NCBI RefSeq assembly: GCF_015040615.1
Contig: NZ_CP060402.1
Span: 558,001 to 622,000, forward strand
Length of the DNA stretch: 64,000 bases
DNA from: Microbacterium sp. YJN-G
Lineage (GTDB): Bacteria > Actinomycetota > Actinomycetes > Actinomycetales > Microbacteriaceae
Direction of reading: 5' to 3'
Positions 43,602-64,000 of the stretch are shown here, piece after piece. The notes under the pieces were generated by a model. The model saw only the letters and a program-made list of their open reading frames with translations. It searched no databases and was not told the origin of the DNA. The translations under genes and the position numbers were made by a program. The number at the start of each line of letters is the position of its first letter. Positions within the stretch are counted from its first letter, which is position 1.

Positions 43602-44546
43602 TCAGCCGCTGGCAGGTGCCGGCTCGCCGGACAGGGATGCCGCGGCCTGCTCGAAGATGCCGCGCATCCACGCATGCTCGGGGTCCCGGCTGTGGACCGG
43701 ATGCCACCAGAGCGCATTGACGACCGGCGTCGCGTCGAACGGCGGCTCGAGGGTGCGCACGCCGGCGACCGATTCGGCGATGTGAGCCAGACCGGCCTGG
43801 ATCAGGCCGAGGCGGTTGGTGCCCGCGATGAAATGCGGCAGCGCGAGGAAGCTCTCGACGACCGACTCGATGCGGGGCTCGATCCCGAGCTGCTGAAGCT
43901 GCCGCGCCGCCGACGTGAACGCGGTGCGCGACTGATAGGTCAGCACCCAGGGCAGGGCGCCGAGCATGTCCATCGTCAGTTCGTCGCCGATCAGCTCATT
44001 CGACTCCGCCGCCACCACGACCCAGCTGTCACGCCACAGGTCGGCGTACGGGAGGTCGGTGAGGTGACCGTGGGGGATGACCATCCCGTCCACTGAACGA
44101 AGACGGTTGAGCGCGTCGTCGACGATCGCCGGGTTGTGCAGCATGAACCGGAACCGCACCCCGGGCGCCACCTCGGCGGCGATCCGCGACACCTCGCTTC
44201 CGATCGTCGCGAAACCGTAGTCCGATCCGTAGATGGAGAACTCCCTGGTCGAGTCTTTCGGGCTCCACGTCGCCTGGCTCTCGAACACGCGGCGTGCCGC
44301 CTCGAGCGCCGTCGTCGTGTGCTCGGTCAGACGCACTGCCAGCGGAGTGAGCTCGTACGTGTTTCCTCGCCGCGCGAGGATCTGGTCGTTGAAGTGGGTT
44401 CGCAAGCGCGCCAGTGATGCACTCAGCGCCGGCTGGCTCAGGTGCAGCCGCTCGGCCGCACGCGTCACGCTGCGCTCGGTCAGCAGTGCATCGAGCGCGA
44501 CCAGCAGATTCAGGTCGAGCCTGGAGAGGAGCGGTTGGTTGGACAC
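43602..44546 (-). CDS. LysR-family transcriptional regulator
   Basis: A 314-residue LysR regulator. The HTH is near residues 20-65 (RSVTRAAERLHLSQPALSAS); the periplasmic-binding-like effector domain follows (REFSIYGSDYGFATIGSEVS, LGALPWVLTYQSRTAF). It resembles the NodD/aromatic branch by its LDLNLLVALDALLTERS start. It is divergent from the glycoside gene at 44782 over 235 bp and is the obvious candidate regulator of that cluster. The GTG at 44546 has GGAG nine bases upstream. Confidence 0.9.
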   Translation of the reverse strand: MSNQPLLSRLDLNLLVALDALLTERSVTRAAERLHLSQPALSASLARLRTHFNDQILARRGNTYELTPLAVRLTEHTTTALEAARRVFESQATWSPKDSTREFSIYGSDYGFATIGSEVSRIAAEVAPGVRFRFMLHNPAIVDDALNRLRSVDGMVIPHGHLTDLPYADLWRDSWVVVAAESNELIGDELTMDMLGALPWVLTYQSRTAFTSAARQLQQLGIEPRIESVVESFLALPHFIAGTNRLGLIQAGLAHIAESVAGVRTLEPPFDATPVVNALWWHPVHSRDPEHAWMRGIFEQAAASLSGEPAPASG

Positions 44547-44668
44547 GACGGTGTGCTCCTGGAGTTCGGGTATCGTTTCGCCAGTGTATCCGCCGGATCT
44601 ATGGAGGCGGTAGGTCGTATCGCTCGCAACGATGTCCCGAATGGCTCGTGCGTGAAGACGTCGGAACT

Positions 44669-44696
44669 GTTATGCGGATATTGCACCTACTTATGT
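44669..44696 (+). promoter_or_regulatory. Shared regulatory motif, copy 1
   Basis: GTTATGCG (44669-44676) and TACTTATGT (44688-44696), 11 bases apart, lie in the gap between the LysR gene and the first fusion gene. The same pair of words is found at 46116-46144. Probably a promoter-proximal operator. Confidence 0.5.
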
Positions 44697-44781
44697 CGGG
44701 GTGGGTCATAACCCGCTAGTCTCGAACGGCCCGCGACCCGTGATTCGCGCGCAGTCGCGTCCATATAGAGAGTGAGCAACG

Positions 44782-46083
44782 ATGCTTCTCGAGAGAGATC
44801 TCATCCAGTCCGTCGGGTTCCGCAATGTGTGGGACGGAGACCGCATCACGGGATTCCAGTTCCGGCTGCGGATGCCGTCGTACCGAGGGATGGTGGCATC
44901 CCTGATCGACGGCGTCGCGGTGCGCGTCGGCGACCTCGTCGATGTTCCCGCGGACGTGCCGCACTGGACCTTCGGCTCCCGAAGCTACACGCTCGCGGAG
45001 CTGTGGGACTCCGACGACGTGCGCTGGCCGCTTGAGGAGGCCGCTGTCGTCACGGTGCCCCACCCCGGCGGGCTGCCCGAAGGCACGCACGAGGTGGCGA
45101 TCCAGCTGCGGCTGCGCATGTCATACATACCCCAGGAGCACCAGCCCTCGACGTACGACGTCTCGCGGCACATCACGCTGACCTCGTCAGACCAGGGAGC
45201 GCCTTTCAAGTACGGCGTGAGTCTGTACAGCTTCATGACCGACTACGGGACGGTGATGGATCTCGAGACCGCTCTCGCCGCTGTGGCGGACGTCGGTGCG
45301 ACCGGCGTCGAGATCCTCGGCGAAGGGCATGTCGCCGGATACCCGGAGCCGACGAACGCGTGGATCGACCGGTGGTACGCCCTGCTTGAGAAGTACGCGC
45401 TCGAGCCCACCAACTACGGTTCGTGGATCGACACGCGCCTGCATTCGAGTGGCGCGAATGCGCGTGACCTCACGGCGGTCGAGGGTGCGGGGATGCTGCA
45501 GCGTGATCTGCGCCTGGCGAAACGTCTCGGGTTCCGCTTCGTCCGCCCCAAGATCGGGGTCGTCTCGAGCGACCTCATCCCGCATCCGATCTGGACCGAG
45601 TCCGTCGAGCGTTCCCTTGACCTCGCCCAGGAGCTCGATGTCGTCATCTGCCCCGAGATACACGCGCCGACACCGATCAGGCATGAAGTCGTCGACGACT
45701 ACATCGACCTCATCGAGCGCACCGGCACGGAGCATTTCGGGCTCCTGCTCGACACTGGGATCTTCCAGGACAGGCCCATTCCGTTGAAGCCCGGTGAGCT
45801 CCCCGGCCGCCGCCCCGCGTTCATGGACGGCATCGCCGTGGACCCTGCCGACATCGCCGACATCGCGAAGTACGTCGTCTTCATCCAGGCGAAGTTCCAC
45901 GACATCGATGAGCACGGCGAGGACCAGCAGATCCCGTGGGAGCCCGTGCTCCGCGCGCTCAAGCAGGCCGGGTACGACGGCTACCTCTCGAGCGAATACG
46001 AGGGTGAGCGAAGCCCGTGGCGCTCGATCGAGCAGGTGCGGCGGCAGCATTCGCTGATGCGCTCGATCGCGTCGCGCCTCTGA
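44782..46083 (+). CDS. C-glycoside deglycosidase beta-alpha fusion 1
   Basis: A 433-residue fusion. Residues 1-140 resemble DUF6379, the beta subunit of C-glycoside deglycosidases (RLRMPSYRGMVASLIDG, DVPHWTFGSRSYTLAELWD). Residues 150-433 are a sugar-isomerase/epimerase TIM barrel like the alpha subunit. Likely metal ligands are Glu in VICPEIHAP, Asp in LLLDTGIF and Glu in YLSSEYEGE; the usual His of HVHxK is Gln in FIQAKFHDID. Separate subunits are the known arrangement. Activity on a C-glycoside is inferred from neighbours. No clear Shine-Dalgarno; ATG 44782. Confidence 0.8.
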   Translation: MLLERDLIQSVGFRNVWDGDRITGFQFRLRMPSYRGMVASLIDGVAVRVGDLVDVPADVPHWTFGSRSYTLAELWDSDDVRWPLEEAAVVTVPHPGGLPEGTHEVAIQLRLRMSYIPQEHQPSTYDVSRHITLTSSDQGAPFKYGVSLYSFMTDYGTVMDLETALAAVADVGATGVEILGEGHVAGYPEPTNAWIDRWYALLEKYALEPTNYGSWIDTRLHSSGANARDLTAVEGAGMLQRDLRLAKRLGFRFVRPKIGVVSSDLIPHPIWTESVERSLDLAQELDVVICPEIHAPTPIRHEVVDDYIDLIERTGTEHFGLLLDTGIFQDRPIPLKPGELPGRRPAFMDGIAVDPADIADIAKYVVFIQAKFHDIDEHGEDQQIPWEPVLRALKQAGYDGYLSSEYEGERSPWRSIEQVRRQHSLMRSIASRL

Positions 46084-46115
46084 GTCTGGACGGGTGCGAC
46101 CGCGGTGCCGTCAGA

Positions 46116-46144
46116 GTTATGCGCAGTATCGTCAATACTTATGT
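46116..46144 (+). promoter_or_regulatory. Shared regulatory motif, copy 2
   Basis: GTTATGCG (46116-46123) and TACTTATGT (46136-46144), 12 bases apart, lie in the 151-bp gap before the importer genes and repeat the arrangement at 44669-44696. Confidence 0.5.
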
Positions 46145-46234
46145 GTGTTTCTGGCGCATCCCGGTGATACTGAAGTCACAGCACAGGCGCTCGAATGGGC
46201 GAGCCGCCGACGATGAAGTCAAGAAAGGCTGGAC

Positions 46235-47533
46235 ATGACACAGCACAGTTCCTCGACCCGGCGTCGAGGCGCCCTGATCGCCGTCCCTGTCGCAGGAGCG
46301 CTGCTCCTGGCCGGCTGCTCGGCCGCCGGCGGCTCGGACGAAGGGAACGAGTCGGGTTCGGCCGCGTTCTCCTTCACCTTCGCGACGTCCAACAACCTCG
46401 AGAGTCCTTACGAGACGCTCGCGAAGGCCTACATGGATGCCAATCCCGATGTCACCATCACGACCAACCCGACCCCGAACGACAAGTACGGTGAGACCAT
46501 CCGGACCCAGTTCCAGGCGGGCAACGCCGCGGACGTCGTGCAGACCACTCCCGGCTCGGGAGACGCTCGGGGGATCATCCCGCTCGCCGAGGCGGGCTTC
46601 CTCGAGCCGCTCGGCGACACCGCCGCCGACCTCGTGCCCGAGGGGAGCGAGACGATCTTCGAACTCGACGGCGAGGTGTACGGTCAGCCGATGGACTTCA
46701 CGATCGCAGCGGTCGTCGCGAGCATGGGAACCGCCGCGATGAACGGCGTCGAGGAGTGGCCGACATCGGAGTCGGAGCTCTACGAAGTCTGTGAGGCTCT
46801 TGCTGCCGACGGCAAGTCGCTTCTCGCGCTCGCCGGTGCGGCCGGCCCCAACGCCGGCCTGACGGCCCAGGGCATCGCTGCCACGCGCGTCTACGCTGAC
46901 ACGCCCGACTGGAACGAGCAGCGCGCCGCCGGCGACGTGACCTTCGCCGAGAGCGACGGGTGGGCGGACACGCTCCAGACGATCATCGATCTGAAGGACG
47001 GCGGCTGCTTCCAGCCGGGTGCCGAGGGCGGCGGCTTCGACGCCATCACCAACGGTCTCGCGCAGGGTATGTCCGTCGGCAGCTTCATCCCCTCAGGGGC
47101 TGCCATCGAGATCTCCAAGGCGGCTCCGCCGGAGGCGAACTTCAAGGTCCAGCCCTTCCCGGCCGCCGACGGTGGCGATCCGTACATCGTCGCCAGCTCG
47201 AACTACACGATCTCGATCAATGCGGCGTCCGAGAAGAAGGACGCGGCGTCCGACTTCGTCGAATGGCTCGCCACGCCGGAGGCGCAGGAGATCTACTACG
47301 AGGCGTCGGGTGAGCTGCCGATCTCGTCCTACAAGGACATGGATCTGAGCGAAACGATCTACTCGCCGGTCGTCGATCTGCTGGCAGAGGGCGCCTACAC
47401 CCCGCTCCCGAACAACATCTGGCCCAACCCTGCGGTGTACGAGGCGCTGCAGGTCGGGGTCCAGGGGCTGCTGACCGGTCAGAAGACCATCGACCAGGTG
47501 CTGCAGGACATGGACGCCGCCTGGGGCGATTGA
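46235..47533 (+). CDS. ABC transporter substrate-binding lipoprotein (glycoside importer)
   Basis: A 432-residue solute-binding protein. A basic start (TQHSSSTRRRG) and hydrophobic stretch lead to the lipobox LAGC. The mature protein has typical family-1 segments YETLAKAYMDANPDVTITTN, VYGQPMDFTIAAVVASM and SDFVEWLATPEAQEIYYEAS. It should capture the glycoside substrate of the cluster. GAAAGG precedes the ATG at 46235. A strong hairpin follows the gene, before the permeases. Confidence 0.9.
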   Translation: MTQHSSSTRRRGALIAVPVAGALLLAGCSAAGGSDEGNESGSAAFSFTFATSNNLESPYETLAKAYMDANPDVTITTNPTPNDKYGETIRTQFQAGNAADVVQTTPGSGDARGIIPLAEAGFLEPLGDTAADLVPEGSETIFELDGEVYGQPMDFTIAAVVASMGTAAMNGVEEWPTSESELYEVCEALAADGKSLLALAGAAGPNAGLTAQGIAATRVYADTPDWNEQRAAGDVTFAESDGWADTLQTIIDLKDGGCFQPGAEGGGFDAITNGLAQGMSVGSFIPSGAAIEISKAAPPEANFKVQPFPAADGGDPYIVASSNYTISINAASEKKDAASDFVEWLATPEAQEIYYEASGELPISSYKDMDLSETIYSPVVDLLAEGAYTPLPNNIWPNPAVYEALQVGVQGLLTGQKTIDQVLQDMDAAWGD

Positions 47534-47541
47534 GCAGGATG

Positions 47542-47568
47542 GCCGCCCGGGCAGCGCGCCCGGGCGGC
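47542..47568 (+). terminator. Intra-operon hairpin between binding protein and permease
   Basis: Perfect 11-bp arms GCCGCCCGGGC and GCCCGGGCGGC around AGCGC. It probably stabilises the upstream mRNA or attenuates the permease genes, which usually need less expression. Confidence 0.65.
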
Positions 47569-47610: not shown

Positions 47611-48570
47611 ATGACCGCGACGCTCAACTCCGAGACCGAGGCGCTGATCGTCCCCAAGCGCAATCGACGGGGACATCGGCCCGATGCTGATCCGCGCCGC
47701 CCGGGGCTGCTCAAGTTCGGCCACTGGTGGTGGGCGCTGCCCGGCATCCTTCTGGTCCTCGCGATCCATTACGCGGCCACCGCGATCGGCGGGTTCTTCG
47801 CCTTCACCGACTGGTCGGGGATCGGCGACTTCAACTGGATCGGGTTCGAGAACTTCATCAAGATCTTCGGCGATCCCACCCAGATCGGGGCGGTCACCAA
47901 CACGCTGTTCCTCGCGTTCGCCTCGGTCATCCTGTCCAACATCGCGGGACTCGCCCTCGCCCTCGGCCTCAACCGCGGGCTGAAGAGCCGCTACGCCCTG
48001 CGCGTGCTGTTCTTCATGCCCGTCGTGCTCAGCCCGCTGGCCGTCTCGTACGTGTGGAAGTTCATCTTCGACTACAACGGGCCGATCAACGGTGTGCTGC
48101 GCTCACTCGGCCTCGGCGAATTCGCGAAGGCGTGGGTCGCAGACCCCACCTGGGCGATCTGGACCATTCTGATCGTCATCGTGTGGCAGAACACGGGTTT
48201 CGCGATGGTCATCTACATGGCCGGCCTCGCAGCGGTGCCCCTCGAGATCGAAGAGGCAGCGGCGATCGACGGAGCGGGTCTGTGGCAGCGCTTCTGGCAG
48301 ATCACGCTCCCGTCGATCCGTCCGGCCGTGGCGATCGCGACCACATTGGGGCTGGTCAACGGGCTGCGGGTCTTCGACCAGATCATGGCACTCACCGGTG
48401 GTGGACCTGCCCGGGCCACCGAGACCCTGGCGACGCAGGTCTACAAGGAGTCGTTCGCACTGGGCAACTTCGGGTACGGCGCCGCCCTGGCGCTCGTGCT
48501 CACGGTCATCATTCTCGTCTTCGCCGTCATCCAGCAGCGGGTGACCACCGGTCGCCCTGAGGAGGCCTGA
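47611..48570 (+). CDS. ABC transporter permease 1 (glycoside importer)
   Basis: A 319-residue permease with six helices. The EAA loop is EIEEAAAIDGAGLWQRFWQI near residue 217. ATG 47611 has GAGGA five bases upstream and is preferred to the earlier in-frame TTG at 47530, which overlaps the hairpin. A one-base gap leads to the second permease. Confidence 0.9.
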   Translation: MTATLNSETEALIVPKRNRRGHRPDADPRRPGLLKFGHWWWALPGILLVLAIHYAATAIGGFFAFTDWSGIGDFNWIGFENFIKIFGDPTQIGAVTNTLFLAFASVILSNIAGLALALGLNRGLKSRYALRVLFFMPVVLSPLAVSYVWKFIFDYNGPINGVLRSLGLGEFAKAWVADPTWAIWTILIVIVWQNTGFAMVIYMAGLAAVPLEIEEAAAIDGAGLWQRFWQITLPSIRPAVAIATTLGLVNGLRVFDQIMALTGGGPARATETLATQVYKESFALGNFGYGAALALVLTVIILVFAVIQQRVTTGRPEEA

Positions 48571-48571
48571 C

Positions 48572-49408
48572 ATGTTCCGCTACACGAAGTTCACCGCCCT
48601 GCGCGAAGTGCTCTTCTGGGGGCTCGCGGTCGTCTTCCTCGCCCCGTTCTACTTCCTGGTCACGACCGCCCTGAAGTCCGACGAGGAGGTGCTGACGACC
48701 TCGAATCTGGCACCGCCCACGAGCCCCGACTTCGGCAACTTCGCCGACGTGCTCACAGCACAGGGCAACTCGAACGTGGTCCAGGGCCTGATCAACAGTC
48801 TCATCATCACCGCGGGCAGCATCCTCGGGCTCATCCTCCTGGGGGCGCTCACCGGCTACGTCATCGCGCGGAGCACCCGTCGCTGGAGTCGCGCCGTCTT
48901 CTACCTGTTCCTCATCGCCATCGTCCTGCCCACACAGCTCGGAACCGTACCGCTCTACATCGGCGCCCGGGCGGTGGGCCTCACGGGGTCGGTGTGGGGG
49001 ATGATCCTGCTGTACACCGGGATGCTCCTCCCACTGGCGATCTTCCTCTACTCCGGCTTCTTCCGGGGACTCGGCACCGAGTACGAGGAGGCGGCGACGA
49101 TCGATGGGGCATCGCGCACGCAGATCTTCTTCCGCGTCGTTCTGCCGCTGATGTCGCCGGCGACGGGAACGGTCGCGATCCTCGCGGGGCTCATCGTCTG
49201 GAACGACTTCTTCACGTCGCTGATCTTCCTCGGCGGCTCCGCGAACCAGACTCTCCCCGTCGCGATGTATTACTACATCGGCTCGCTCGTGTCGTCCTGG
49301 AACAAGATCTTCGCGATCGTGATCGTCTCGATGATCCCCATCCTCGCCTTCTACCTCTTCGCGCAGAAGCGCTTCATCCAGGGATTCGCCGGCGGCCTCA
49401 AGGGCTGA
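48572..49408 (+). CDS. ABC transporter permease 2 (glycoside importer)
   Basis: A 278-residue permease with six helices and the EAA loop EYEEAATIDGASRTQIFFRV near residue 175. It completes the importer. No ATPase gene is found in the cluster, so an ATPase encoded elsewhere is required. The perfect palindrome CGCGACGGCCGTCGCG (49423-49438) lies in the 80-bp gap that follows. Confidence 0.9.
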   Translation: MFRYTKFTALREVLFWGLAVVFLAPFYFLVTTALKSDEEVLTTSNLAPPTSPDFGNFADVLTAQGNSNVVQGLINSLIITAGSILGLILLGALTGYVIARSTRRWSRAVFYLFLIAIVLPTQLGTVPLYIGARAVGLTGSVWGMILLYTGMLLPLAIFLYSGFFRGLGTEYEEAATIDGASRTQIFFRVVLPLMSPATGTVAILAGLIVWNDFFTSLIFLGGSANQTLPVAMYYYIGSLVSSWNKIFAIVIVSMIPILAFYLFAQKRFIQGFAGGLKG

Positions 49409-49488: not shown

Positions 49489-50283
49489 ATGTATCAGCTC
49501 GCACCCAACATCGAACTCCTCTTCACCGAGGCCGGCGACTATCACGACCGCGTCCGTGCGGCCGCGGAAGCGGGCTTCGATGCCGTGGAGATGTGGGGGC
49601 CGACCGGCGTGGATGCGCCGGCGAAGCCCAAAGACCTTCCGGCGCTCAAGGCGGCATTGGAGGAGACCGGCACCCAGCTGACCGCACAGCTCTCCGAACC
49701 GCGCACGCAGTTCATGATCCCGCCGTGGGATCACTCGGAGTTCTTCCGCAAGCTGGATGAGGGCGTCGCCATCGCACGCGACCTCGGCTGCCCGCGCGTC
49801 GTCGTCGGCAGCGGAACCGGATTCGGCGGCTGGAAGCGGCAGGTGCAGCTCGACAAGCTCATCGAGATCTACCAGAAGGCCGTCGCGCAGATCGACGGCT
49901 CCGGGATCACCCTGGTGCTCGAGCCCGTGAACATCCGCGTCGATCACCCGGGGTCGCTGCTGGATCGCACGGCCGAGGCGGCCTACGTCGCCCGGGGCGT
50001 CGAGTCGCCGCACTTCGGTGTGCTGTACGACATCTACCACTCCGCCGTCGAAGGGGAGGACATGGCCGCCGAACTCGCCGACGCCGGTGACCTGATCAAG
50101 TACGTGCAGCTGGCTGACGCGCCTGGCCGCGGAGAGCCCGGTTCGGGCGCACTCGACTGGCCGAACCGGCTCGGCATTCTCCGGGCCGCCGGCTACGCGG
50201 GCCCGATCGGGCTGGAGTACTACCCGACGCAGGAGTCGGCGGCGTCGGTCGCCCTCATCCGGGACGTGGCGGTTACGGCATGA
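49489..50283 (+). CDS. Hydroxypyruvate isomerase-like TIM-barrel sugar isomerase
   Basis: A 264-residue xylose-isomerase-like TIM barrel, nearest in pattern to hydroxypyruvate isomerase. Likely metal ligands are Glu in TLVLEPVN, Asp in GVLYDIYH, and Glu in IGLEYYPT; the family loop is APGRGEPGSGALDWP. It may rearrange a sugar fragment released by the pathway. ATG 49489 follows AGGAG. It overlaps the FAD oxidase gene by four bases. Confidence 0.82.
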   Translation: MYQLAPNIELLFTEAGDYHDRVRAAAEAGFDAVEMWGPTGVDAPAKPKDLPALKAALEETGTQLTAQLSEPRTQFMIPPWDHSEFFRKLDEGVAIARDLGCPRVVVGSGTGFGGWKRQVQLDKLIEIYQKAVAQIDGSGITLVLEPVNIRVDHPGSLLDRTAEAAYVARGVESPHFGVLYDIYHSAVEGEDMAAELADAGDLIKYVQLADAPGRGEPGSGALDWPNRLGILRAAGYAGPIGLEYYPTQESAASVALIRDVAVTA

Positions 50284-51800
50284 ACGCGTATCCCGCCTCG
50301 GTCGACGTCGCGATCGTCGGCAGCGGACCCACCGGTGCGACGTACGCGCGCATCCTGACCGAGCGTGCCCCGCACGCCACGATCGCGATGTTCGAGGTCG
50401 GCCCGACCGTCTCGCAGCCGCCGGGCGCGCACGTGAAGAACATCGAGGATGCTGAGCAGCGGACACACGCACAGCGCCGTTCCGAAGGACCGGGCGCCGG
50501 GTCTGCGACAGTGAACTCTCCCGGCGCGGTGCGGTCGGGTGAGCGGCGGGCGAGGCCCGGTACGTATCTGCTCGCCGACGGCTTTCAGGCGGACGGCGAG
50601 GACGGACTGCCCGTGGTGGCGTTCTCGAGCAATGTCGGCGGAATGGCCGCGCACTGGACCGGTGCGTGCCCGCGACCGGGAGGAAGCGAGCGCATCGGAT
50701 TCATCCCCGATATGGACGAGCTGCTCGACGATGCCGACCGCCTTCTGGGCGTGACGACGGATGCTTTCGACGCCGCGCCCTTCACCTCTCTGGTGCGGGA
50801 GCGGCTCGCCGCTGTGGTCGATGAGGGCCGGGACGAAGCCGCCCGCGTGCAGCGGATGCCGCTCGCGGTGCATCGCCGAGAAGACGGCAGGCTCGTGTGG
50901 TCCGGCTCGGACGTCGTGCTCGGAGACGTCACACGCAGCAACCCCGGCTTCTCACTGTTCGATGAATCGCTGGTGACTCGCGTCCTCGTCGAGGATGGAC
51001 GGGCTGCCGGGGTGGTGGTTCGAGACCTGAGCACCGGGGATGAGCACGAGATCCGCGCTCGCGTCGTGGTGGTCGCAGCCGATGCGCTCCGCACTCCGCA
51101 GGTGCTGTGGGCCTCCGGCATCCGTCCCGCTGCGCTCGGCAGGATGCTCAACGACCAGTCGCAGGTCGTCTACGCCGCCCGGCTGCGCGACGTGGATCCG
51201 CCGCGCGAGGATCAGATCGCCGCATCCGGCGCGCTCAGCGAGCAGAGCGGGGTGAGCTGGGTGCCCTTCACGGATGACATGCCGTTCCACGGTCAGATCA
51301 TGCAGCTCGACGCCTCACCCGTTCCGCTCGCCGATGACGACCCGGTCGTCCCTGGATCGATCGTGGGCCTCGGGCTCTTCTGCGTGAAGGATCTGCAGTG
51401 GGACGACAGGGTCGAGTTCTCGGACTCCGAGCTCGACTCGTACGGCATGCCGGCGATGCGCGTGCACTACCGGCTCACCGACCGGGATCACGACGTGCTC
51501 GATCGCGCACGCGCCCAGATCGTCGAGCTGGCACGTGCGGTCGGTGAGCCCATCGGCGAGCATCCGTTCACGATGCCGCTGGGTGCCTCGCTGCACTATC
51601 AGGGCACCACGCGGATGGGTGAGACCGAAGACGGTCGCAGCGTGTGCGGCCCCGACAGCGAGGTGTGGGGAGTGTCCGGCCTGTTCGTCGCCGGCAACGG
51701 CGTGATCCCGACATCGACAGCGTGCAACCCGACGCTCACCTCGGTGGCGCTGGCGATTCGCGGTGCACGGCGGATCGCATCCGCTCTTGCTTATGTCTGA
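50280..51800 (+). CDS. GMC/pyranose-oxidase-like FAD oxidoreductase (CarA-like)
   Basis: A 506-residue flavoprotein. The FAD fold starts VDVAIVGSGPTGATYARIL. GGMAAHWTGACP matches the pyranose oxidase site where a His carries covalent FAD. The catalytic His is in SLHYQGTTRMG and Asn in STACNPTLTSVALA. Pyranose oxidases and the glycoside 3-oxidase CarA of Microbacterium belong here. The likely role is oxidation of the sugar C3-OH of a C-glycoside, the step that permits C-C cleavage. It is followed by beta and alpha deglycosidase genes. Confidence 0.87.
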   Translation: MNAYPASVDVAIVGSGPTGATYARILTERAPHATIAMFEVGPTVSQPPGAHVKNIEDAEQRTHAQRRSEGPGAGSATVNSPGAVRSGERRARPGTYLLADGFQADGEDGLPVVAFSSNVGGMAAHWTGACPRPGGSERIGFIPDMDELLDDADRLLGVTTDAFDAAPFTSLVRERLAAVVDEGRDEAARVQRMPLAVHRREDGRLVWSGSDVVLGDVTRSNPGFSLFDESLVTRVLVEDGRAAGVVVRDLSTGDEHEIRARVVVVAADALRTPQVLWASGIRPAALGRMLNDQSQVVYAARLRDVDPPREDQIAASGALSEQSGVSWVPFTDDMPFHGQIMQLDASPVPLADDDPVVPGSIVGLGLFCVKDLQWDDRVEFSDSELDSYGMPAMRVHYRLTDRDHDVLDRARAQIVELARAVGEPIGEHPFTMPLGASLHYQGTTRMGETEDGRSVCGPDSEVWGVSGLFVAGNGVIPTSTACNPTLTSVALAIRGARRIASALAYV

Positions 51801-56832: not shown

Positions 56833-56834
56833 AC

Positions 56835-57842
56835 ATGTCACGTCCGATCACGCTGTTCACCGGTCAGTGGGCCGACCTGCCGTTCGAAGAGGTCGCCCGC
56901 CTCGCGGGCGAGTGGGGCTATGACGGCCTCGAGATCGCCTGCTGGGGTGATCACATCGACGTCTCCCGCTGGGATGACGCCGACTACGTGCAGTCGCGCC
57001 TGGACATCCTCGAGCGCAACGGGCTGAAGGCCTGGGCCATCTCCAACCATCTCGCCGGTCAGGCCGTCTGCGACGACCCGATCGACGAGCGGCACCGCGA
57101 CATCCTGAACGACCGCGTGTGGGGTGACGGCGACCCGGAGGGTGTGCGTCAGCGCGCTGCCGAGGAGCTGAAGATGACCGCCCGGTTCGCCGCGAAACTC
57201 GGCGTCAAGACGGTCACCGGGTTCACCGGATCGTCGATCTGGAAGGCCGTGGCGATGTTCCCGCCGGCCTCAGACGAGTGGATCGCGGCCGGCTACCGGG
57301 ATTTCGCGGATCGCTTCCACCCGATCCTCGACGTGTTCGAAGAGGTCGGAGTGCGCTTCGCGCTCGAGGTGCATCCGTCCGAGATCGCCTATGACTACTG
57401 GACGGCGAAGGCGACCCTCGAGGCGATCGGCCACCGCGAGAGCTTCGGCATCAACTTCGATCCGTCGCACTTCATGTGGCAGCAGCTGGATCCCGTCGCG
57501 TTCGTGCTCGACTTCGCCGACCACATCCTCCACGTGCATGTGAAGGAGTCGATCACCAACCTCGACGGCCGCAACGGCGTGCTGGGGTCGCACCTGCCAT
57601 GGGCCCACCCGCGCCGCGGGTGGACGTTCGTGTCCACCGCGCACGGCGAGGTGCCGTGGGAGCCGCTGTTCCGCGCGCTGAATGCGATCGGCTATACCGG
57701 CCCCACGTCGGTCGAATGGGAGGATGCCGGAATGGATCGTCTGCACGGCGCGCCGGAGGCGATCGCGTTCGTGCGCGAGCTGAACGCCATCACGCCCCCG
57801 GCGGCAGCCTTCGACGCGGCGTTCTCGACCAAGACCGAGTGA
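56835..57842 (+). CDS. Sugar phosphate isomerase/epimerase family protein
   Basis: A 335-residue TIM barrel. Ligand-like residues are Glu in FALEVHPSE, Asp in [10 protein letters not shown], His in LHVHVKES and Glu in TSVEWEDAG. This form, with HVHVKE, resembles the epimerase/isomerase branch that partners Gfo/Idh/MocA and ThuA proteins in 3-keto-sugar metabolism, rather than the deglycosidase alpha subunits. ATG 56835 is two bases after the previous stop. Confidence 0.85.
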
Positions 57843-57850: not shown

Positions 57851-58720
57851 ATGGGCGAGATCCTGGATGTGCTCATCCTCTCCGGTCACATGACCCGGGA
57901 GCACGACAACGAGTTCCGCAGCTTCCGCCAGCACAACCAGTGGCTGACGACCCTGCTCGAGGACACCGGGCGTTTCCGCGTGCGGGTGATCGAGGACCCT
58001 CGGGGCCTCGGCGCCGAGGTCATCGACCGGTACGACGTCGTGATCGTCGTGTTCGAGGGGCGCGACGGCTACCACGAGAAGGCGATCGGCTTCGGCGAGG
58101 AGACGGATGCCGCACTGCTCAGGTTCGTGCACGACGACGGCAAGGGCATCGTGTGGTTCCACGGCTCAGCGGCACAGGAGGACGACTGGGGGCATCCGCA
58201 GGAGTACAACGTGATGCGCGGCTCGAGGATGACCGTGGCCGGCGGGCTGCGGCCACGGCCGTGGGGTGAGGCGCAGCTCGACACCGTCGAGCCGCGACAC
58301 GCGATCACCGAGGGGATCAGCGCGCGGTGGACGGTGACCGGCGACGACATCCTCACGGGCGTCGAGATCCTCGACGGTGCGCAGGTTCTTCTGACCACCT
58401 ACGACGACCTCGAGTCCTACGTGAACGCGCCGAACTGGCCCATGTCGCACTACCCGGTCGCGATCCCGCAGGAGGGCGTGGCGGCGCTGCCCGGTATGAA
58501 CACCGACCAGCCGATCGCCTGGATCAACGAGTACGGCGCCGGGAGATCTTTCACGATCACGATCGGTCACGACATCGACACGTTCCGGCGTGTGGAGTTC
58601 ATCCGGATGTTCCCGCGGGGCGTCGAGTGGGCTGCGACGGGCGAGGTCACGCTCAGCGGTCCCGACCGCCGCGGCGAGCGGCGCTTCCTGCCGTGGCCGT
58701 ACTACAACGGCGAGGGCTGA
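57851..58720 (+). CDS. ThuA-like domain protein
   Basis: A 289-residue protein with a ThuA-like (class I glutamine amidotransferase-like) fold: LDVLILSGHMTREHDNEFRS, YDVVIVVFEGRDGYHEKAIG, GKGIVWFHGSAAQEDDW and GRSFTITIGHD. ThuA-like proteins accompany keto-disaccharide catabolism; their chemistry in such clusters is not settled. ATG 57851 is used; an in-frame GTG at 57839 would overlap the previous stop by four bases. Its last 19 bp overlap the convergent fusion 2 gene. Confidence 0.82.
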   Translation: MGEILDVLILSGHMTREHDNEFRSFRQHNQWLTTLLEDTGRFRVRVIEDPRGLGAEVIDRYDVVIVVFEGRDGYHEKAIGFGEETDAALLRFVHDDGKGIVWFHGSAAQEDDWGHPQEYNVMRGSRMTVAGGLRPRPWGEAQLDTVEPRHAITEGISARWTVTGDDILTGVEILDGAQVLLTTYDDLESYVNAPNWPMSHYPVAIPQEGVAALPGMNTDQPIAWINEYGAGRSFTITIGHDIDTFRRVEFIRMFPRGVEWAATGEVTLSGPDRRGERRFLPWPYYNGEG

Positions 58721-60213
58721 GCGTGGTCTGACAGTGCCCGCCGCGCGAGGGCCAGGTGGCTGCGTGTCATGGTGGCCGCGTCGGCTTCGAGCCACTCGTG
58801 GCCGCCCCATTCGCTGGTCAGGCTGCCGGTGAAGCCGCTGCGGCGCAGAGCGGCGCCGATGTCGCGGATCGGACCCGAGACCCGGTCGTCGTCATCGTCG
58901 AGATCCCAGAACTTGAGGTGGACGGCGCCTGTCAGGGGGAGCAGAGGCTCGAGGTCGGCGATCTGAGAGCGTCCGAAGCGCACGAGCAGGTTCATGAAGA
59001 GCATGTGCGCGGCCGCGGGGACCTGCCCGCCCCGCAGTGCGTCGCGTACGGCTGACTGCGTCTCGGATGACTGCCACTCCTGCTCGAGCCGCGTGGTGAG
59101 CGCGGCATCCACGCCCGCACGGCGCAGCGCGTCGAGGTAGCTCGGCGGCAGCGACGGCATGAGCATGCTGATGTCGATCAATACGCGCAGGTGCGGGTCA
59201 TCGAGGTCGTGCAGGAGCGTCAGGTTCGCCGCGGTGTCGGGCGCATCGAGTGACTGCGGGCCCTGGATCTCCTCGTAGAGAACGATGTCGAACTCGTTCA
59301 GCACCGGCTGCACGAGGCGCAGGAGATCACGGCCCGCCTGGCCGAAGGGCACGCGAACGCCTCGGGCGCCCAGCCGGGCAGCCGCGCGCAGCTGCGGTGC
59401 GAGGAACGCGAATCGCTCCTGCTCGGTGCGCCGTCGCGACGGGGAGGCCCAGTCGTCCAGACTCGCCCCGACGATCGTCACGCGACCCCCTGCAGCTGCC
59501 AGGCGCGTGCGGAACGCGTCGACGTCCGCGGTGGACGGCTCCGGGAACGATCGCCACATCTGGCCGGGCTCGATCTCGATCGCCGGCGCGATGTCATCCG
59601 CCACGATTCCGATCGCGATGTCGGCCGCTGATCGTGCGGTGCCGATCACCTCACGAGTCCAGTTGAACGCACTCGCCGACAGCATCCAGTCCTCGGGGTC
59701 GGAGGGCGGATCGATGGTCCGCTCCGTGACCGCTGCACCCGCTGCCTCGCGAGGATCGGTGCCGGTCCCGGCATCGGCACTGTGCGGTGCGCCGGGGGTG
59801 TGCGGTGCGCCGGGGGTGTGCGGCGCGACGGGGGTGTGCGGTGCGACGGGGGTGAGCGGGCGTTCGTCATGGAACCGCAGCACGAGTGGTGCGTCGGGTC
59901 CTGCGGGCAGGTAGGGCACGTGCAGCCTCATCGACACCGCGACGTCGTGTTCGCCCGGAGGGAGGACCTGCGCGCAATGCAGTTCGAGTCGATCCTGAAT
60001 GAACCACCAGCCGGGTTCCCGGGTGAGTGAACCCGGTGCGATCCGCCTCCCGTCGATGGCTGCTCTGACCGGGATGGAGGAGCCGTCGACCCGCACCTCG
60101 AGGTGGGTGACTGCGGCGAGGGGCATGGATCGGATCCACGGCAGGCTCAGCCGCAGGACGAAGCCGGAGTCGGTCGTCTCAAGTGCATCGTCCAGCAGCA
60201 GCGGCAACGTCAT
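58702..60213 (-). CDS. C-glycoside deglycosidase beta-alpha fusion 2
   Basis: A 503-residue fusion with a different linker from fusion 1. Residues 1-125 are DUF6379-like (LRLSLPWIRSMPLAAV, GWWFIQDRLELH, MRLHVPYLP). Residues 125-165 are a low-complexity linker with four TP(V/G)APH units. Residues 175-503 are an alpha-like barrel with Glu in LYEEIQGPQS, Asp in LIDISMLMPS, His in GAVHLKFWDL and Glu in LTSEWGGHEW, a full ligand set. ATG 60213 has AAGGGA upstream. It overlaps the ThuA gene by 19 bp tail-to-tail. Confidence 0.75.
   Translation of the reverse strand: MTLPLLLDDALETTDSGFVLRLSLPWIRSMPLAAVTHLEVRVDGSSIPVRAAIDGRRIAPGSLTREPGWWFIQDRLELHCAQVLPPGEHDVAVSMRLHVPYLPAGPDAPLVLRFHDERPLTPVAPHTPVAPHTPGAPHTPGAPHSADAGTGTDPREAAGAAVTERTIDPPSDPEDWMLSASAFNWTREVIGTARSAADIAIGIVADDIAPAIEIEPGQMWRSFPEPSTADVDAFRTRLAAAGGRVTIVGASLDDWASPSRRRTEQERFAFLAPQLRAAARLGARGVRVPFGQAGRDLLRLVQPVLNEFDIVLYEEIQGPQSLDAPDTAANLTLLHDLDDPHLRVLIDISMLMPSLPPSYLDALRRAGVDAALTTRLEQEWQSSETQSAVRDALRGGQVPAAAHMLFMNLLVRFGRSQIADLEPLLPLTGAVHLKFWDLDDDDDRVSGPIRDIGAALRRSGFTGSLTSEWGGHEWLEADAATMTRSHLALARRALSDHAQPSPL
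59781..59852. repeat. Four 18-bp tandem repeats in fusion 2 linker
   Basis: An 18-bp unit (TGTGCGGTGCGCCGGGGG and variants) occurs four times at 59781, 59799, 59817 and 59835. It encodes the TP(V/G)APH linker units. Confidence 0.9.
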
Positions 60214-60300
60214 GCGTGTACTCCCTTGTCCACAGCCGTACGGCTTCTGGCAGAAAAATACACGCTTATGCCGGTTATTGGAAGAAGTGCGATTGTGTCA

Positions 60301-61593
60301 TCACGGCGCGATCTCGGCGGTGCCGCGGATCGCATCGATCGACGGTCGTCCGTCGCCGAACCAGCGTGGGAAGGTCACATCGAACAACTGCTCGCGCACC
60401 ATCTCCACGCCGCCGCGCAGCGGCTCGCGGCGATCACTCACAGACGTTGCGATGGTCAGATCGCGTGTAGCCAGGGGGATCGAGAGCTCGTACACGCGCT
60501 GGCGCACCTCGGCGAGCAGCAGCTCGCCCGCCCCCGCCATGGCGCCCCCGATCACGATGACCGACGGGTTGAACATGTTCACGAGCGCGGCGATCGACTC
60601 TCCGACGACTCGCGCCGAGCGCTGCACGAGGCGGATGGCGAGTGCGTCGCCGTCCTCGGCGGCCGATGAGATGAGCTCGGGCGTGAGCTCATCGCCCGCC
60701 GAGACGGCGGCGGCCAGCACACCCGTCGCTCCTGCTTCGATCTCGGCGAGTGCGTCGCGGATCAATGCCCAGCCGCCGGCCACTGCTTCGAGGCAGCCGA
60801 CCTTGCCGCACCGGCACAGGACCTCGGAGTCCCGCACCCGAACGTGGCCGATGTCACCGGCTGCGCCGTTGACGCCTCGATGGATGCGGCCGTGTGACAA
60901 CAGGCCGGCACCGATGCCGGAGCCGATCTTGCAGTAGATGAGGTCCAGGTGCTCGTCACCGCGGCGTGCGCGCTCGCCGAAGGTCAGCAGATTGACGTCG
61001 TTGTCCACCCAGACCGGGACGTCGTAGCGCTGCTCGAATCGACGCCGCACGTCGAAGCCATTCCATCCGGGCATGATCGGCGGCGCGACCGGACGTCCGC
61101 TTTCGAAGTCCACGGGTCCGGGCACGCCGACCCCGATACCCCAGACGGGCAGGTCTGGCGTGCGGCCGAGCAGTTCGTCGATCAGGCGGAGCGCCTCATC
61201 CAGCGTCTCGGCGGGGCCTTTGGAGATGTCCCAGCGGGCGTGAGCCTGATCGATGACGTCTCCGTCCAGGAGGGCCACGCCGACGTGGATGTGCAGGGCG
61301 CCGAGCGCGCACACCACGATTCGTCCCGCGTCGCCGCGGAAGCGAAGTGTGCGCGGGGCGCGGCCGCCGGACGAGGGGCCGAACTCGCCGTCGGCGAGAT
61401 AGCCGATCTCGATCGCGTGATCGACGCGCTGCGTCACGACCCCCCGGCCCAATCCCGTCACGCGGCCGATCTCGGGGCGGGTCGTCGCCTCGCCTGTGCG
61501 AACCATGTTGACGATGCGCAGAAGGCTCGTCATCTCGTCAGTCTGTGCGCCGAATCGCAGCGTGGACTCTCTGGCCATGGTCGATTGTTGCAT
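60301..61593 (-). CDS. ROK-family transcriptional regulator (cluster right side)
   Basis: A 430-residue ROK repressor with an HTH near residues 20-70 (GEATTRPEIGRVTGLGRGVV), the sugar-kinase-like domain (GIGVGVPGPVDFESGRP, VDNDVNLLTFGERARRGDEH) and the zinc motif CRCGKVGCLE. It should sense a sugar product and repress nearby genes. ATG 61593 or the in-frame ATG at 61578 could start it. It is divergent from the oxidoreductase gene at 61683 over 89 bp and follows fusion 2 upstream. Confidence 0.88.
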   Translation of the reverse strand: MQQSTMARESTLRFGAQTDEMTSLLRIVNMVRTGEATTRPEIGRVTGLGRGVVTQRVDHAIEIGYLADGEFGPSSGGRAPRTLRFRGDAGRIVVCALGALHIHVGVALLDGDVIDQAHARWDISKGPAETLDEALRLIDELLGRTPDLPVWGIGVGVPGPVDFESGRPVAPPIMPGWNGFDVRRRFEQRYDVPVWVDNDVNLLTFGERARRGDEHLDLIYCKIGSGIGAGLLSHGRIHRGVNGAAGDIGHVRVRDSEVLCRCGKVGCLEAVAGGWALIRDALAEIEAGATGVLAAAVSAGDELTPELISSAAEDGDALAIRLVQRSARVVGESIAALVNMFNPSVIVIGGAMAGAGELLLAEVRQRVYELSIPLATRDLTIATSVSDRREPLRGGVEMVREQLFDVTFPRWFGDGRPSIDAIRGTAEIAP

Positions 61594-61682
61594 AACTGGG
61601 TGTCGTTCCGGCGGATTTCGCGCAATCTATAGTCAAACGTCTTCAAACTTAGGTACGCTTCGTGCGAAAGCGAGGAGGCGAC

Positions 61683-62714
61683 ATGACGCTCGGTGTGGGA
61701 ATCATCGGCGCCGGTCCGGGCGTGGCCGCACTGCACGTCCCGACGCTGGCCCGGCTGGCGGAGACCTTCCGCATCGCGCACGTCGCCGATGCGGGCAGCG
61801 GCCGCGCTGCGGCGCTCGCCGGGCAGGTGGGTGCGCGCTCATCGACCGGCATCGAGACGCTGCTGGCGGATGACGATGTGGATGTCGTCGCGATCTGCAG
61901 CCCGCCGGACGAGCATGCCCGGCATGTCATCGCCGCGGTCGAAGCGGGCAAGCGCGCCGTCTTCTGCGAGAAGCCGCTGGCAGTGACGATCGAGCAGGCG
62001 GAGGAGGCCGCCGAGGTATGCCGACGGGCCGGAGTGCCGCTGATCGTCGGCACCAATCACTGCTTCGATCCCGCGTGGGGTCGGGCGAAGCACCACCTCG
62101 CCCGGTCCGGCGGCCAGGTCGTCTCGATCTCCGTGACCCTCGCCCTGCCACCCAATACGCGTTATCACGAGCTCGTCGCCGAGATTCCTGTCGCTTCCGG
62201 CGGACATCGGCCACCCGATCTCACCCGGCCCGAGATCGCAGCCGATGTCGTCCGGCGGCTTCTCGTCGGACTCGGCATCCATGACCTCCCGCTCGTGCGC
62301 GACCTCGCCCCACGGCTGGAGAGGGTGCTCTTCGCTCGGGCAGTCCCGCCGCTGGGGTGCGCCGTGGGCTTCATCGCGCAGGGCATCCCCGTCCAGTTCA
62401 CGACCGTGATGCTGCCCGGCGGCGCCGACGCGCTCTGGCGCATCACCGTCACGACCTCCGGCGAGCGGGTCGACGTGACCTTCCCGCCTGCCTTCGTGCA
62501 CGCGGGCGGCGCGGAGGTCCGCGTGCGCACGGCTGACGGTCGCGACACGCTCTATTCGCAGGGCGCCATCGACGGGTACATCGCCGAGTGGCGCGCCCTC
62601 GCCGAACTGCTCGACGCCGGGCTCCCGGTGGAGTACGACGAACTGCTCGACGACGCGCGCTACGCCCTCCGCCTCGCCGATGAGGCAGCCGCACTCGTAG
62701 GGTCCGCCGCATGA
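61683..62714 (+). CDS. Gfo/Idh/MocA-family oxidoreductase 2
   Basis: A 343-residue NAD(P)-dependent oxidoreductase. The Rossmann loop is VGIIGAGPGVAALHVP and the Lys motif FCEKPLAVT. Residues 150-300 are less typical (IPVASGGHRPPDLTRPEIA), with a shortened substrate domain. GAGGAGG precedes the ATG at 61683. It overlaps the next gene by four bases. Confidence 0.88.
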   Translation: MTLGVGIIGAGPGVAALHVPTLARLAETFRIAHVADAGSGRAAALAGQVGARSSTGIETLLADDDVDVVAICSPPDEHARHVIAAVEAGKRAVFCEKPLAVTIEQAEEAAEVCRRAGVPLIVGTNHCFDPAWGRAKHHLARSGGQVVSISVTLALPPNTRYHELVAEIPVASGGHRPPDLTRPEIAADVVRRLLVGLGIHDLPLVRDLAPRLERVLFARAVPPLGCAVGFIAQGIPVQFTTVMLPGGADALWRITVTTSGERVDVTFPPAFVHAGGAEVRVRTADGRDTLYSQGAIDGYIAEWRALAELLDAGLPVEYDELLDDARYALRLADEAAALVGSAA

Positions 62715-63487
62715 GGGCGCGGGTCGTCACGCGCCTCGAGCCGTATCTCGTCGCGATCGCCGAGCTGCCCGAAAGCGCCGAGTCCGCCCCAGAGGCTGAG
62801 GGCTCCATCGTGGTCGTGGACGGTCAGGGCGACTGGTGCTCGGCTGCGGCGGACGCGCTCGCGCGCGGCGCGGCCGCGATCATCGTCTCTCGGCCGTCGC
62901 CGGCCCCAGTCGGGTCACTGGACGCCCTCGCCGCCGTCGTGCAGAGCGTTCCGGTGATCCTCGAGCGCGACCTGCTGCGCGCTGACGCCGTCGATCTGGT
63001 CAGGGACTCGATGAGCGAGATCGCGACGCCGGCCGTCCTCGCCGTCGAATGTCATGCGCCCCGTCCTCAGCTAGGCACGGCATTGCATGATGCGATCGGC
63101 TGGGCCCGAGTGATCGCCGGGGCGCGGCTGTCGGTGCGATCGGGCGCTTCGTCCGGCGGGCGGGTGCTCGGCCTGCTCGAGGCAGGCCCGGACGCGGCGG
63201 TGCCAGTGATCGCCGGGGAGCAGCCCGGTGCCGGGCCGCTCGGATGCGTGCGCGTCACAACCCTCGCCGAGACGCGTCTCGAGGTCGAGGCGGCGCGGGA
63301 TGTCGTCGTGGCCGTCACCGATTCCACCGGTCGACGTGTCCTACCGGCCCTGTTCGAGTCCCCGCACCGTGTCGCCCTGCGTCGCGCGATCGCCGCCGTG
63401 TGCACAGGCACGGGGACGGTTGACCTCCGCGATCTTCGTGACGACGCGGCCGCCGTCGAGGCCTTGCTCGCCACCGCAGGCGCATAA
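62711..63487 (+). CDS. Hypothetical protein coupled to the oxidoreductase
   Basis: A 258-residue protein of no recognised family, with an alternating alpha/beta pattern (GSIVVVDGQGDWCSAAADAL, AAAIIVSRPSP, PVILERDLL) resembling half of a Rossmann-like fold. Its start ATGA overlaps the oxidoreductase stop, so it may be a partner or accessory domain. No catalytic motif recognised. Confidence 0.65.
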   Translation: MRARVVTRLEPYLVAIAELPESAESAPEAEGSIVVVDGQGDWCSAAADALARGAAAIIVSRPSPAPVGSLDALAAVVQSVPVILERDLLRADAVDLVRDSMSEIATPAVLAVECHAPRPQLGTALHDAIGWARVIAGARLSVRSGASSGGRVLGLLEAGPDAAVPVIAGEQPGAGPLGCVRVTTLAETRLEVEAARDVVVAVTDSTGRRVLPALFESPHRVALRRAIAAVCTGTGTVDLRDLRDDAAAVEALLATAGA

Positions 63488-63499
63488 ATGTGAGTGATC

Positions 63500-63556
63500 A
63501 TGAAGATCGACGATATGGGATTCCTCGATATGCCCGACTTCGGCAAAAGTGGATGA
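63500..63556 (+). CDS. Possible 18-codon peptide
   Basis: A short open frame ATG 63500 to TGA 63556 encodes MKIDDMGFLDMPDFGKSG. It may be a leader peptide or the remnant of a longer gene. No Shine-Dalgarno is evident. Confidence 0.2.
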   Translation: MKIDDMGFLDMPDFGKSG

Positions 63557-63593
63557 CGGGATCACCCCGCCGACTCACCGAAAGGGATCGAAG

Positions 63594-64000
63594 ATGATCA
63601 AGCTGCTGTCACATCTGTCATATGTGGCCATCACGTCGCCGGATGTCGAGGCGTCCGTCGATTTCTACGTCGAACAGGTCGGCCTCACCGTCGTCGACCG
63701 CGTCGACGGTGCCGTCTACCTCCGCTGCTGGGGTGACTACTACGCGTACTCGGTCGTGGTGGTTCCGGGCGATGAGCCCGGCCTCGTCACGGCCGCGTGG
63801 CGCACGTCCAGCGCCGAAGCGCTCGAGGAGGCCGCCAGGCGGGTCGAGGCCACAGGCATCGAGGGGGAGTGGATCGACGTGCACGCCATCGGCCGTGCGT
63901 ACCGGTTCACCGGCCCGTGGGGCCACACCCTCACGCTGCACTGGGACGTCACGCGTCACCACGACACCGAGGGCGACGCCGCCTCGATCTACCCCGACCG
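63594..64000 (+). CDS. VOC-family extradiol dioxygenase-like protein (C-terminus outside window)
   Basis: The visible 135 codons are a vicinal-oxygen-chelate domain like those of catechol 2,3-dioxygenases: LLSHLSYVAITSPDVEASVD, FYVEQVGLTVVDRVDGAVYL, and GPWGHTLTLHWDVTRH. His in LSHLSYV and in TLHWD are metal-ligand candidates; the Glu would lie beyond the window. It could open the ring of the aromatic aglycone released by the cluster. ATG 63594 follows AAAGGG. Confidence 0.7.
   Translation, partial: MIKLLSHLSYVAITSPDVEASVDFYVEQVGLTVVDRVDGAVYLRCWGDYYAYSVVVVPGDEPGLVTAAWRTSSAEALEEAARRVEATGIEGEWIDVHAIGRAYRFTGPWGHTLTLHWDVTRHHDTEGDAASIYPD

What the first reader, a model, noticed from the sequence alone, without database searches (positions are those of the whole stretch)
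43602..64000. Large candidate C-glycoside catabolic cluster with multiple deglycosidase paralogues
A LysR regulator, ABC importer, CarA-like FAD oxidase, two beta and two alpha deglycosidase-like genes, two beta-alpha fusions, three further sugar isomerase/oxidoreductase-type genes, a ThuA-like protein, a ROK regulator and an extradiol-dioxygenase-like gene form one neighbourhood. Known CarABC-type clusters need one oxidase and one alpha/beta pair. The expansion here suggests several glycoside substrates or several cleavage steps.
Basis: partly seen in the sequence, partly recalled or inferred. Interest (0 to 1): 0.85.

Follow-up and report, generated by a model that had tools for sequence, protein, structure and literature searches.

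The report
Conserved bacterial C-glycoside degradation gene cluster
This soil bacterium carries a conserved set of genes that appears to strip sugars off plant C-glycosides and then break down the ring left behind; most of its enzymes are of known types, but one looks like the bond-cutting enzyme yet has lost the cutting residues while keeping the metal site.

Summary
In detail: window 43602-64000 holds the genes listed, including two beta and two alpha C-glycoside deglycosidase (CGD) genes and two beta-alpha fusions. The cluster runs about 9 kb past the window (aromatic ring-cleavage genes, MFS, second POx/G3Ox-type oxidase). It is not a one-off expansion: 34 of 149 sampled genomes of the genus have CGD-beta genes (3-6 matches each), the paralogue classes are old clades, and multiple CGDs per genome are published. 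fusA is the class of the solved Microbacterium testaceum CGD (8qrz).

Two points go further. (1) The ring-cleavage VOC gene is in 34 of 34 CGD-bearing genomes and 16 of 115 others; an orthologue of this cluster's LysR lies near it in 14 of those 16. It probably degrades the aglycone. (2) The second fusion, FusB, keeps all five metal ligands but lacks the three residues known for C-C cleavage (betaTyr39 to Ile, His149 to Gln, Glu307 to Gly) in 19 of 19 clusters and nearly all of 120 homologues. In the genus sample it occurs only with CGDs (32 of 34; 0 of 115). It is probably not a lyase; its reaction is open.

The parts
43602..44546 (-). LysR regulator; orthologues (62-75% id) lie near the stand-alone ring-cleavage module in 14 of 16 genomes without CGD (12 adjacent, 2 about 5 kb away)
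44782..46083 (+). fusA: natural CGD beta-alpha fusion, class of the solved Microbacterium testaceum CGD (8qrz/8un2); metal ligand His269 is Gln in this class
46235..47533 (+). ABC sugar solute-binding protein
47611..48570 (+). ABC permease 1 (the ORF could also start at TTG 47530)
48572..49408 (+). ABC permease 2
49489..50283 (+). tim1: hydroxypyruvate isomerase/2-oxo-tetronate isomerase-like TIM barrel (below equivalog cut-offs)
50280..51800 (+). ox1: FAD glycoside-oxidase type (7qf8 864 bits, 7dve 820 bits; that 7qf8 is PsG3Ox and 7dve a CarA is recalled)
51851..52255 (+). beta1: CGD beta subunit, Tyr39 kept
52252..53370 (+). alpha1: CGD alpha subunit, all seven metal/catalytic residues, Gly249 (C6-type signature)
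53382..54419 (+). alpha2: CGD alpha subunit, AgCGD2 class (7dnm_A 627 bits), Met249
54453..55229 (+). SnoaL_4 / NTF2-like protein; in the genus sample only in CGD-bearing genomes (25 of 34; 0 of 115)
55238..55654 (+). beta2: CGD beta subunit, Tyr39 kept
55651..56832 (+). gfo1: Gfo/Idh/MocA, best NCBIfam model levoglucosan dehydrogenase (348 bits, cut-off 650)
56835..57842 (+). tim2: AP_endonuc_2 TIM barrel, weakly IolE-like (28 bits)
57851..58720 (+). ThuA-family protein
58702..60213 (-). FusB: CGD-like beta-alpha fusion; metal ligands E315 D347 H432 K434 E468 kept; catalytic positions changed (I27, Q317, G470)
60301..61593 (-). ROK-family protein; on the same strand as FusB, 87 bp upstream of it
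61662..62714 (+). gfo2: second Gfo/Idh/MocA protein (ATG alternative 61683)
62711..63487 (+). fast-evolving protein without Pfam or NCBIfam match
63594..64000 (+). start of the VOC extradiol-dioxygenase-like gene; the whole gene is L005:3594-4613, followed by FAH1, cyclase, FAD monooxygenase, amidohydrolase, FAH2, MFS, ox2 (L005:4702-13081)

Best explanation
This is an old, conserved C-glycoside utilisation cluster of Microbacterium and relatives. Inferred route: the ABC importer brings in aryl-C-glucosides. Oxidase ox1 (and ox2 at the far end) makes the 3-keto-glycoside with O2. Three metal-dependent beta-eliminating lyases of different specificity (fusA, alpha1beta1, alpha2beta2) split the C-C bond into aglycone and 2-hydroxy-3-keto-glucal. 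tim1/tim2 hydrate or isomerise the sugar product and gfo1/gfo2 reduce it. The freed aglycone is hydroxylated by the FAD monooxygenase, ring-opened by the VOC dioxygenase and processed by the FAH hydrolases, cyclase and amidohydrolase, under the LysR regulator. FusB is a metal-binding, non-lyase relative serving the keto-glycoside part, not the aglycone part. Shown here: gene content, orthology, active-site residues, co-occurrence. Inferred: every reaction, metal binding itself, the substrate and the regulation.
For: Domains and similarity. Metal and catalytic residues complete in alpha1 21/21, alpha2 20/20 and fus2 18/18 alphas, with betaTyr39 in beta1 21/21, beta2 20/20, fusA 21/21 and fus2 17 of 17 aligned beta parts. 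Tyr39Phe in PuCGE abolishes C- but not O-glycoside cleavage (PMC10628242, passages), so kept Tyr39 points to C-glycosides. Gene set largely shared across 21 compared clusters, with losses in some. VOC orthologue in 34/34 CGDB+ against 16/115 CGDB- genomes; FAD monooxygenase in 33/34 against 16/115. LysR orthologue near 14/16 stand-alone modules. FusB in 32/34 against 0/115. FAD monooxygenase plus glyoxalase-type dioxygenase is the published start of naringenin (Fde) and daidzein (Ifc) ring cleavage (PMC11069340, passages).
Against: No expression, growth or enzyme data for this strain. The ring-cleavage module also exists without CGD in 16 genomes, so it is not dedicated to C-glycosides. Orthology of FAD monooxygenase and VOC to FdeE/FdeC or IfcA/IfcB was not tested; their PDB neighbours are generic (6-hydroxynicotinate 3-monooxygenase 97 bits; a catechol dioxygenase 152 bits). 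fusA has Gln at a metal-ligand position whose Ala mutants lose activity in PuCGD and MiCGD (PMC8563793 section 11). The MFS gene resembles drug-efflux permeases, below their cut-offs. G100 has CGDs but no FAD monooxygenase orthologue and no FusB. Fisher p-values ignore shared ancestry.
Confidence: 0.78

Rival explanations
1. FusB is a second, divergent C-C or C-O lyase (CGD/OGE-like) with substitute catalytic residues; the expansion is simply four deglycosidases for four substrates.
Against: His149 to Gln, Glu307 to Gly and betaTyr39 to Ile are fixed in 19/19 clusters. His134Ala leaves the O-glycoside eliminase AtOGE without activity (PMC10628242, passage); the His149-equivalent Ala mutants keep 10.4% (PuCGD) and 1.8% (MiCGD), the Glu307-equivalent one of MiCGD 1.9% (PMC8563793 section 12).
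Confidence: 0.15
2. FusB is a catalytically dead binding or regulatory protein, for example an inducer sensor working with the neighbouring ROK protein.
For: Catalytic base lost; FusB evolves fast (median 58% id to own against 87% for alpha1 and 77% for fusA); ROK and FusB are consecutive on one strand.
Against: All five metal ligands are invariant in 120 of 120 homologues and many other columns are fixed, which a pure binder would not obviously need.
Confidence: 0.25
3. The locus is a general 3-keto-O-glycoside or levoglucosan-type pathway (GlycDH/OGE or Lgd), not a C-glycoside pathway.
For: gfo1's best NCBIfam model is levoglucosan dehydrogenase (348 bits); operons of this logic exist (PMC10628242 section 7 passages). 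PurA, a CarA-like oxidase, also takes O-glycosides (PMC12724307, passage).
Against: betaTyr39 is specifically needed for C-glycosides in PuCGE and is kept here; alpha2 is of the AgCGD2 class and fusA of the M. testaceum CGD class; gfo1 is far below the equivalog cut-off.
Confidence: 0.1
4. The ring-cleavage genes are an unrelated aromatic operon that happens to lie next to the CGD genes.
For: It stands alone in 16 CGD-negative genomes, in two of the four looked at with a branched-chain-type ABC transporter.
Against: Its VOC gene is present in 34/34 CGDB+ genomes, within the fetched stretch of 19 of 21 compared clusters, and the CGD cluster carries an orthologue of the LysR that lies near the stand-alone module.
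Confidence: 0.2

Closest known systems
CarA/CarB/CarC (MiCGD) of Microbacterium sp. 5-2b and MtCGD of M. trichothecenolyticum (PMC8563793)
   Same: C3 oxidase plus metal-dependent alpha-beta lyase; alpha1 carries their Gly/Ala249 signature. M. trichothecenolyticum DSM 8608 appears to be G062 (equal contig length 219649 and place) and has this cluster; that MtCGD is one of its modules is inferred
   Different: Here further CGD classes, a second oxidase and a ring-cleavage module lie in the same cluster
Microbacterium testaceum C-glucosyl deglycosidase, PDB 8qrz/8un2 (titles)
   Same: fusA matches it over the full length (778.6 bits, residues 1-433), including the Gln at ligand position 269
   Different: No paper naming these entries found in the library searched; its measured activity not seen
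AgCGD2 (AgCarB2-C2), PDB 7dnm
   Same: alpha2 626.8 bits over residues 2-339 of 354; all catalytic residues and Met249 kept
   Different: alpha2 and beta2 are separated by a SnoaL_4 gene here
PsG3Ox cluster of Pseudarthrobacter siccitolerans (PMC10646112)
   Same: G3Ox with two CGD_B and two CGD_C genes downstream
   Different: No fusions or ring-cleavage genes mentioned in the section read (6)
Fde (naringenin) and Ifc (daidzein) catabolic clusters (PMC11069340, passages)
   Same: FAD monooxygenase plus glyoxalase-type ring-cleavage dioxygenase
   Different: Fde/Ifc sequences not compared here; IfcA homologues were reported only from Proteobacteria

Membership tests
C-glycoside deglycosidase (CGD/CGE): alpha1beta1, alpha2beta2, fusA | DUF6379/CGDB beta part plus AP_endonuc_2 TIM alpha part | tested here: met
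C-glycoside deglycosidase (CGD/CGE): alpha1beta1, alpha2beta2 | Metal ligands Glu147, Asp179, His269, Lys271, Glu305 and catalytic His149, Glu307 | tested here: met
   alpha1 21/21, alpha2 20/20
C-glycoside deglycosidase (CGD/CGE): fusA | Metal ligand His269 (AgCGD2 numbering) | tested here: not met
   Gln in 21 of 22 rows (the other is gapped there); 49/49 rows; the solved M. testaceum CGD 8qrz has the same Gln, so the family is wider than this feature
C-glycoside deglycosidase (CGD/CGE): alpha1beta1, alpha2beta2, fusA | betaTyr39 needed for C-glycoside cleavage | tested here: met
   21/21, 20/20, 21/21; equivalence to PuCGE Tyr39 inferred from the alignment offset to 7bvr_B
C-glycoside deglycosidase (CGD/CGE): FusB | Catalytic His149, Glu307 and betaTyr39 | tested here: not met
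   Gln, Gly, Ile in 19/19 clusters; among the 120 best database hits Gln 119/120, Gly 120/120, Ile in 118 of 121 aligned rows, 3 gapped
C-glycoside deglycosidase (CGD/CGE): FusB | Five metal ligands | tested here: met
   19/19 and 120/120 at each position
C-glycoside deglycosidase (CGD/CGE) | Cleaves 3-keto-C-glucosides | not testable with these tools
   needs enzyme assays
Glycoside 3-oxidase / C-glycoside oxidase (ox1) | Full-length similarity to 7qf8 and 7dve | tested here: met
   863.9 and 820.4 bits over residues 3-502
Levoglucosan dehydrogenase (gfo1) | NCBIfam NF052479 cut-off 650 bits | tested here: not met
   348 bits
Catechol 2,3-dioxygenase (VOC gene) | NCBIfam TIGR03211 cut-off 320.2 bits | tested here: not met
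   235.6 bits
Fde/Ifc-type flavonoid ring cleavage | FAD monooxygenase and VOC dioxygenase orthologous to FdeE/FdeC or IfcA/IfcB | not tested
   only gene-type resemblance seen

The most novel reading that the evidence does not exclude
FusB founds a new enzyme type inside the CGD fold: a metal-dependent keto-C-glycoside isomerase or epimerase. [quoted passage not shown] An enzyme keeping the metal site and the beta (aglycone-binding) domain, but without the His/Tyr/Glu set that breaks the C-C bond, could return the 2-keto form to the 3-keto form before the lyases act. This would explain why FusB occurs only together with true CGDs in the genus sample (32/34 against 0/115). Against it: 2-keto-puerarin re-isomerises fast without an enzyme in the same paper, and a later paper sees no need for a catalyst in the 3-to-2 slide (PMC13273386, passages).
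Probability: 0.2. Interest if true: 0.7.

Novelty: new variant of a known kind. Interest (0 to 1): 0.5.

Why it matters
C-glycosides are chemically stubborn plant products, and in the papers seen here the soil pathway is followed only to release of the aglycone. This locus couples uptake, oxidation, C-C cleavage and a candidate ring-cleavage route in one conserved unit that can be tested by single deletions. FusB is a natural CGD relative without the catalytic residues, useful for asking what else this metal site can do.

Tried and rejected
Recent in-genome duplication: rejected, the five classes are each one clade (support 100/100 for four, 100/98 for fus2) across 11 genomes (51 rows; the tool warns of long branches, so relations between classes are unsure). 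Chance DUF6379 calls: rejected. Ordinary sugar-phosphate isomerases: rejected for fusA, alpha1, alpha2; tim1 and tim2 do look like ordinary isomerase/dehydratase barrels. A motif search for betaTyr39 missed many fus2 and beta1 rows and was replaced by a profile alignment. Searches for a paper on the fusion found none in the library held. A search for 3-keto-glucoside epimerase papers gave nothing usable. The SnoaL_4 protein gave only weak PDB matches (8abv E 1e-5, 8abt, 8abu); the three rows with E above 0.05 there are taken as chance. The second AlphaFold job and the third protein search were not used.

Results that limit my reading: FAD monooxygenase matches below 40% identity (G079, G100, G106, G123, G136) were dropped before the 33/34 and 16/115 count (54 genomes matched at the cut-off). 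Of 34 CGD-bearing genomes 21 were compared gene by gene; 13 were not fetched. FusB alphas were seen in 19 of those 21: in G047 the fetched stretch ends before it (one search finds it), G100 has none. Of 16 stand-alone modules, gap genes were typed by Pfam in four (two with branched-chain-type transporters, two with a metallo-beta-lactamase-fold gene). In one search nine FusB rows were listed; two lie over the beta gene and were set aside, the other seven agree. In one search five FusB matches hold a stop inside the aligned stretch and G019 is in two pieces; not examined. The alpha2 row of the identity count mixes in fus2 and was not used.
Full report
Observation. Pfam gives CGDB (PF19906) in fusA, beta1, beta2 and, at the threshold, FusB; the genome has just these four, all here. 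The oxidase matches 7qf8 with 864 bits and 7dve with 820. alpha2 matches AgCGD2 alpha (7dnm) with 627 bits and fusA matches 8qrz with 779 bits over its whole length; the entry title, seen, is Microbacterium testaceum C-glucosyl deglycosidase. So a natural beta-alpha fusion of this class already has a solved structure filed as a CGD.

Extent. The cluster runs on to about 73.1 kb in window coordinates: VOC dioxygenase, FAH1, cyclase, FAD monooxygenase, amidohydrolase, FAH2, MFS, and a second POx/G3Ox-type oxidase (359 bits to 8qve, 343 to 7dve, 340 to 7qf8); next come DUF3375 and DUF4194 (MksE-like) genes that look unrelated. The MFS resembles efflux permeases, below their cut-offs.

Conservation. 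In a sample of the genus (named relatives are mostly Microbacterium), 34 of 149 genomes have CGDB, four matches in 21 of the 34 and three to six in all; in a phylum sample 3 of 396, own included. Gene-by-gene comparison of 21 of the 34 clusters shows largely the same gene set, with losses in some (G100 lacks several genes, G094 lacks alpha2/beta2). Median identities to the window's proteins are 68-89% for most genes, but 58% for FusB, 57% for gfo2, 52% for the solute-binding protein and 36% for the unassigned gene. A second fusion (fus2, about 495 aa) is present in 18 of 21, next to fusA in 16; it is missing in the window's genome. FusB is one gene in some genomes and separate alpha and beta genes in others. 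Named loci put similar neighbourhoods in Agromyces, Pseudoclavibacter and Pseudarthrobacter enclensis; in five of five Agromyces loci the MFS-ox2 pair sits directly beside fusA/fus2, which suggests that ox2 works with fusA (inference).

Active sites. Using AgCGD2 numbering (PMC8563793, sections 11-12 read), alpha1 (21/21), alpha2 (20/20) and fus2 (18/18) keep Glu147, Asp179, His269, Lys271, Glu305, His149 and Glu307; fusA has Gln for His269 in 21 of 22 rows (one gapped) and 49/49 rows from named loci. Position 249 is Gly in alpha1 (21/21) and Met in alpha2 (20/20); the paper links Ala/Gly here to C6-acting enzymes and Met to C8-acting AgCGD2, so complementary regiospecificity is predicted.

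Aglycone side. VOC orthologues (80-100% id for the best match) are in 34/34 CGDB+ and 16/115 CGDB- genomes (Fisher p 1e-21, ancestry ignored); the FAD monooxygenase in 33/34 and 16/115. In the 16 genomes without CGD the module stands with an orthologue of this cluster's LysR nearby in 14 (12 adjacent, 2 about 5 kb away). I read this as an aglycone pathway with its own regulator to which the CGD genes were joined. FAD monooxygenase plus glyoxalase-type dioxygenase is how the naringenin and daidzein A-rings are attacked (PMC11069340, passages); orthology to those enzymes was not tested.

Literature. Searches in the open library: none of the 20 papers listed of 23 contains DUF6379, and of the 12 papers the only one with 'extradiol' is a betalain review. 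Many subscription papers are not held; the Deinococcus aerius cluster paper was seen only as a reference. Papers were seen as follows: PMC8563793 outline, sections 8, 11, 12, 13 and passages; PMC10646112 section 6 and passages; PMC10628242, PMC12724307, PMC13273386, PMC11069340, PMC11303751, PMC11170127, PMC10807413, PMC11673046 and PMC12141560 passages only; others listings only.

Verdict. Confirmed, mostly known chemistry, standard for CGD-bearing members of this genus; new elements are the tight link to a ring-cleavage module and FusB.

Noticed in passing
L087, L089, L090: Records titled Fulvimarina MAG, Planococcus sp. APC 4015 and Stenotrophomonas maltophilia P13 carry fusA at 79-82% identity; the Planococcus contig (72520 bp) has the length of G131:C10, which the genome set places in this genus. 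Likely mislabelled or contaminated records.
   Followed up: partly
G323:C1:677547-681261: A genome of another family in the same phylum has four CGDB matches in a row within 4 kb.
   Followed up: no
window 59770-59860: FusB's linker between beta and alpha parts holds a tandem repeat (APHTPV/APHTPG-like) and has pLDDT < 50 at residues 132-169.
   Followed up: partly
G019:C17:20077-21136: FusB appears in two overlapping pieces, possibly a frameshift.
   Followed up: no
solute-binding protein position: The solute-binding protein is replaced in several genomes by a divergent one (39-57% id), often on the other strand, hinting at different imported substrates.
   Followed up: no
L126:3443-8304, L138:10227-14138: Two stand-alone ring-cleavage modules carry branched-chain-type ABC transporter genes, suggesting direct uptake of an aromatic compound.
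   Followed up: partly
window 54453-55229: SnoaL_4 protein between alpha2 and beta2: 25 of 34 CGDB+ and 0 of 115 CGDB- genomes in the genus sample; function unknown.
   Followed up: partly
window 62711-63487: Gene with no Pfam or NCBIfam match and 33-53% identity across the compared clusters, much less conserved than its neighbours.
   Followed up: no
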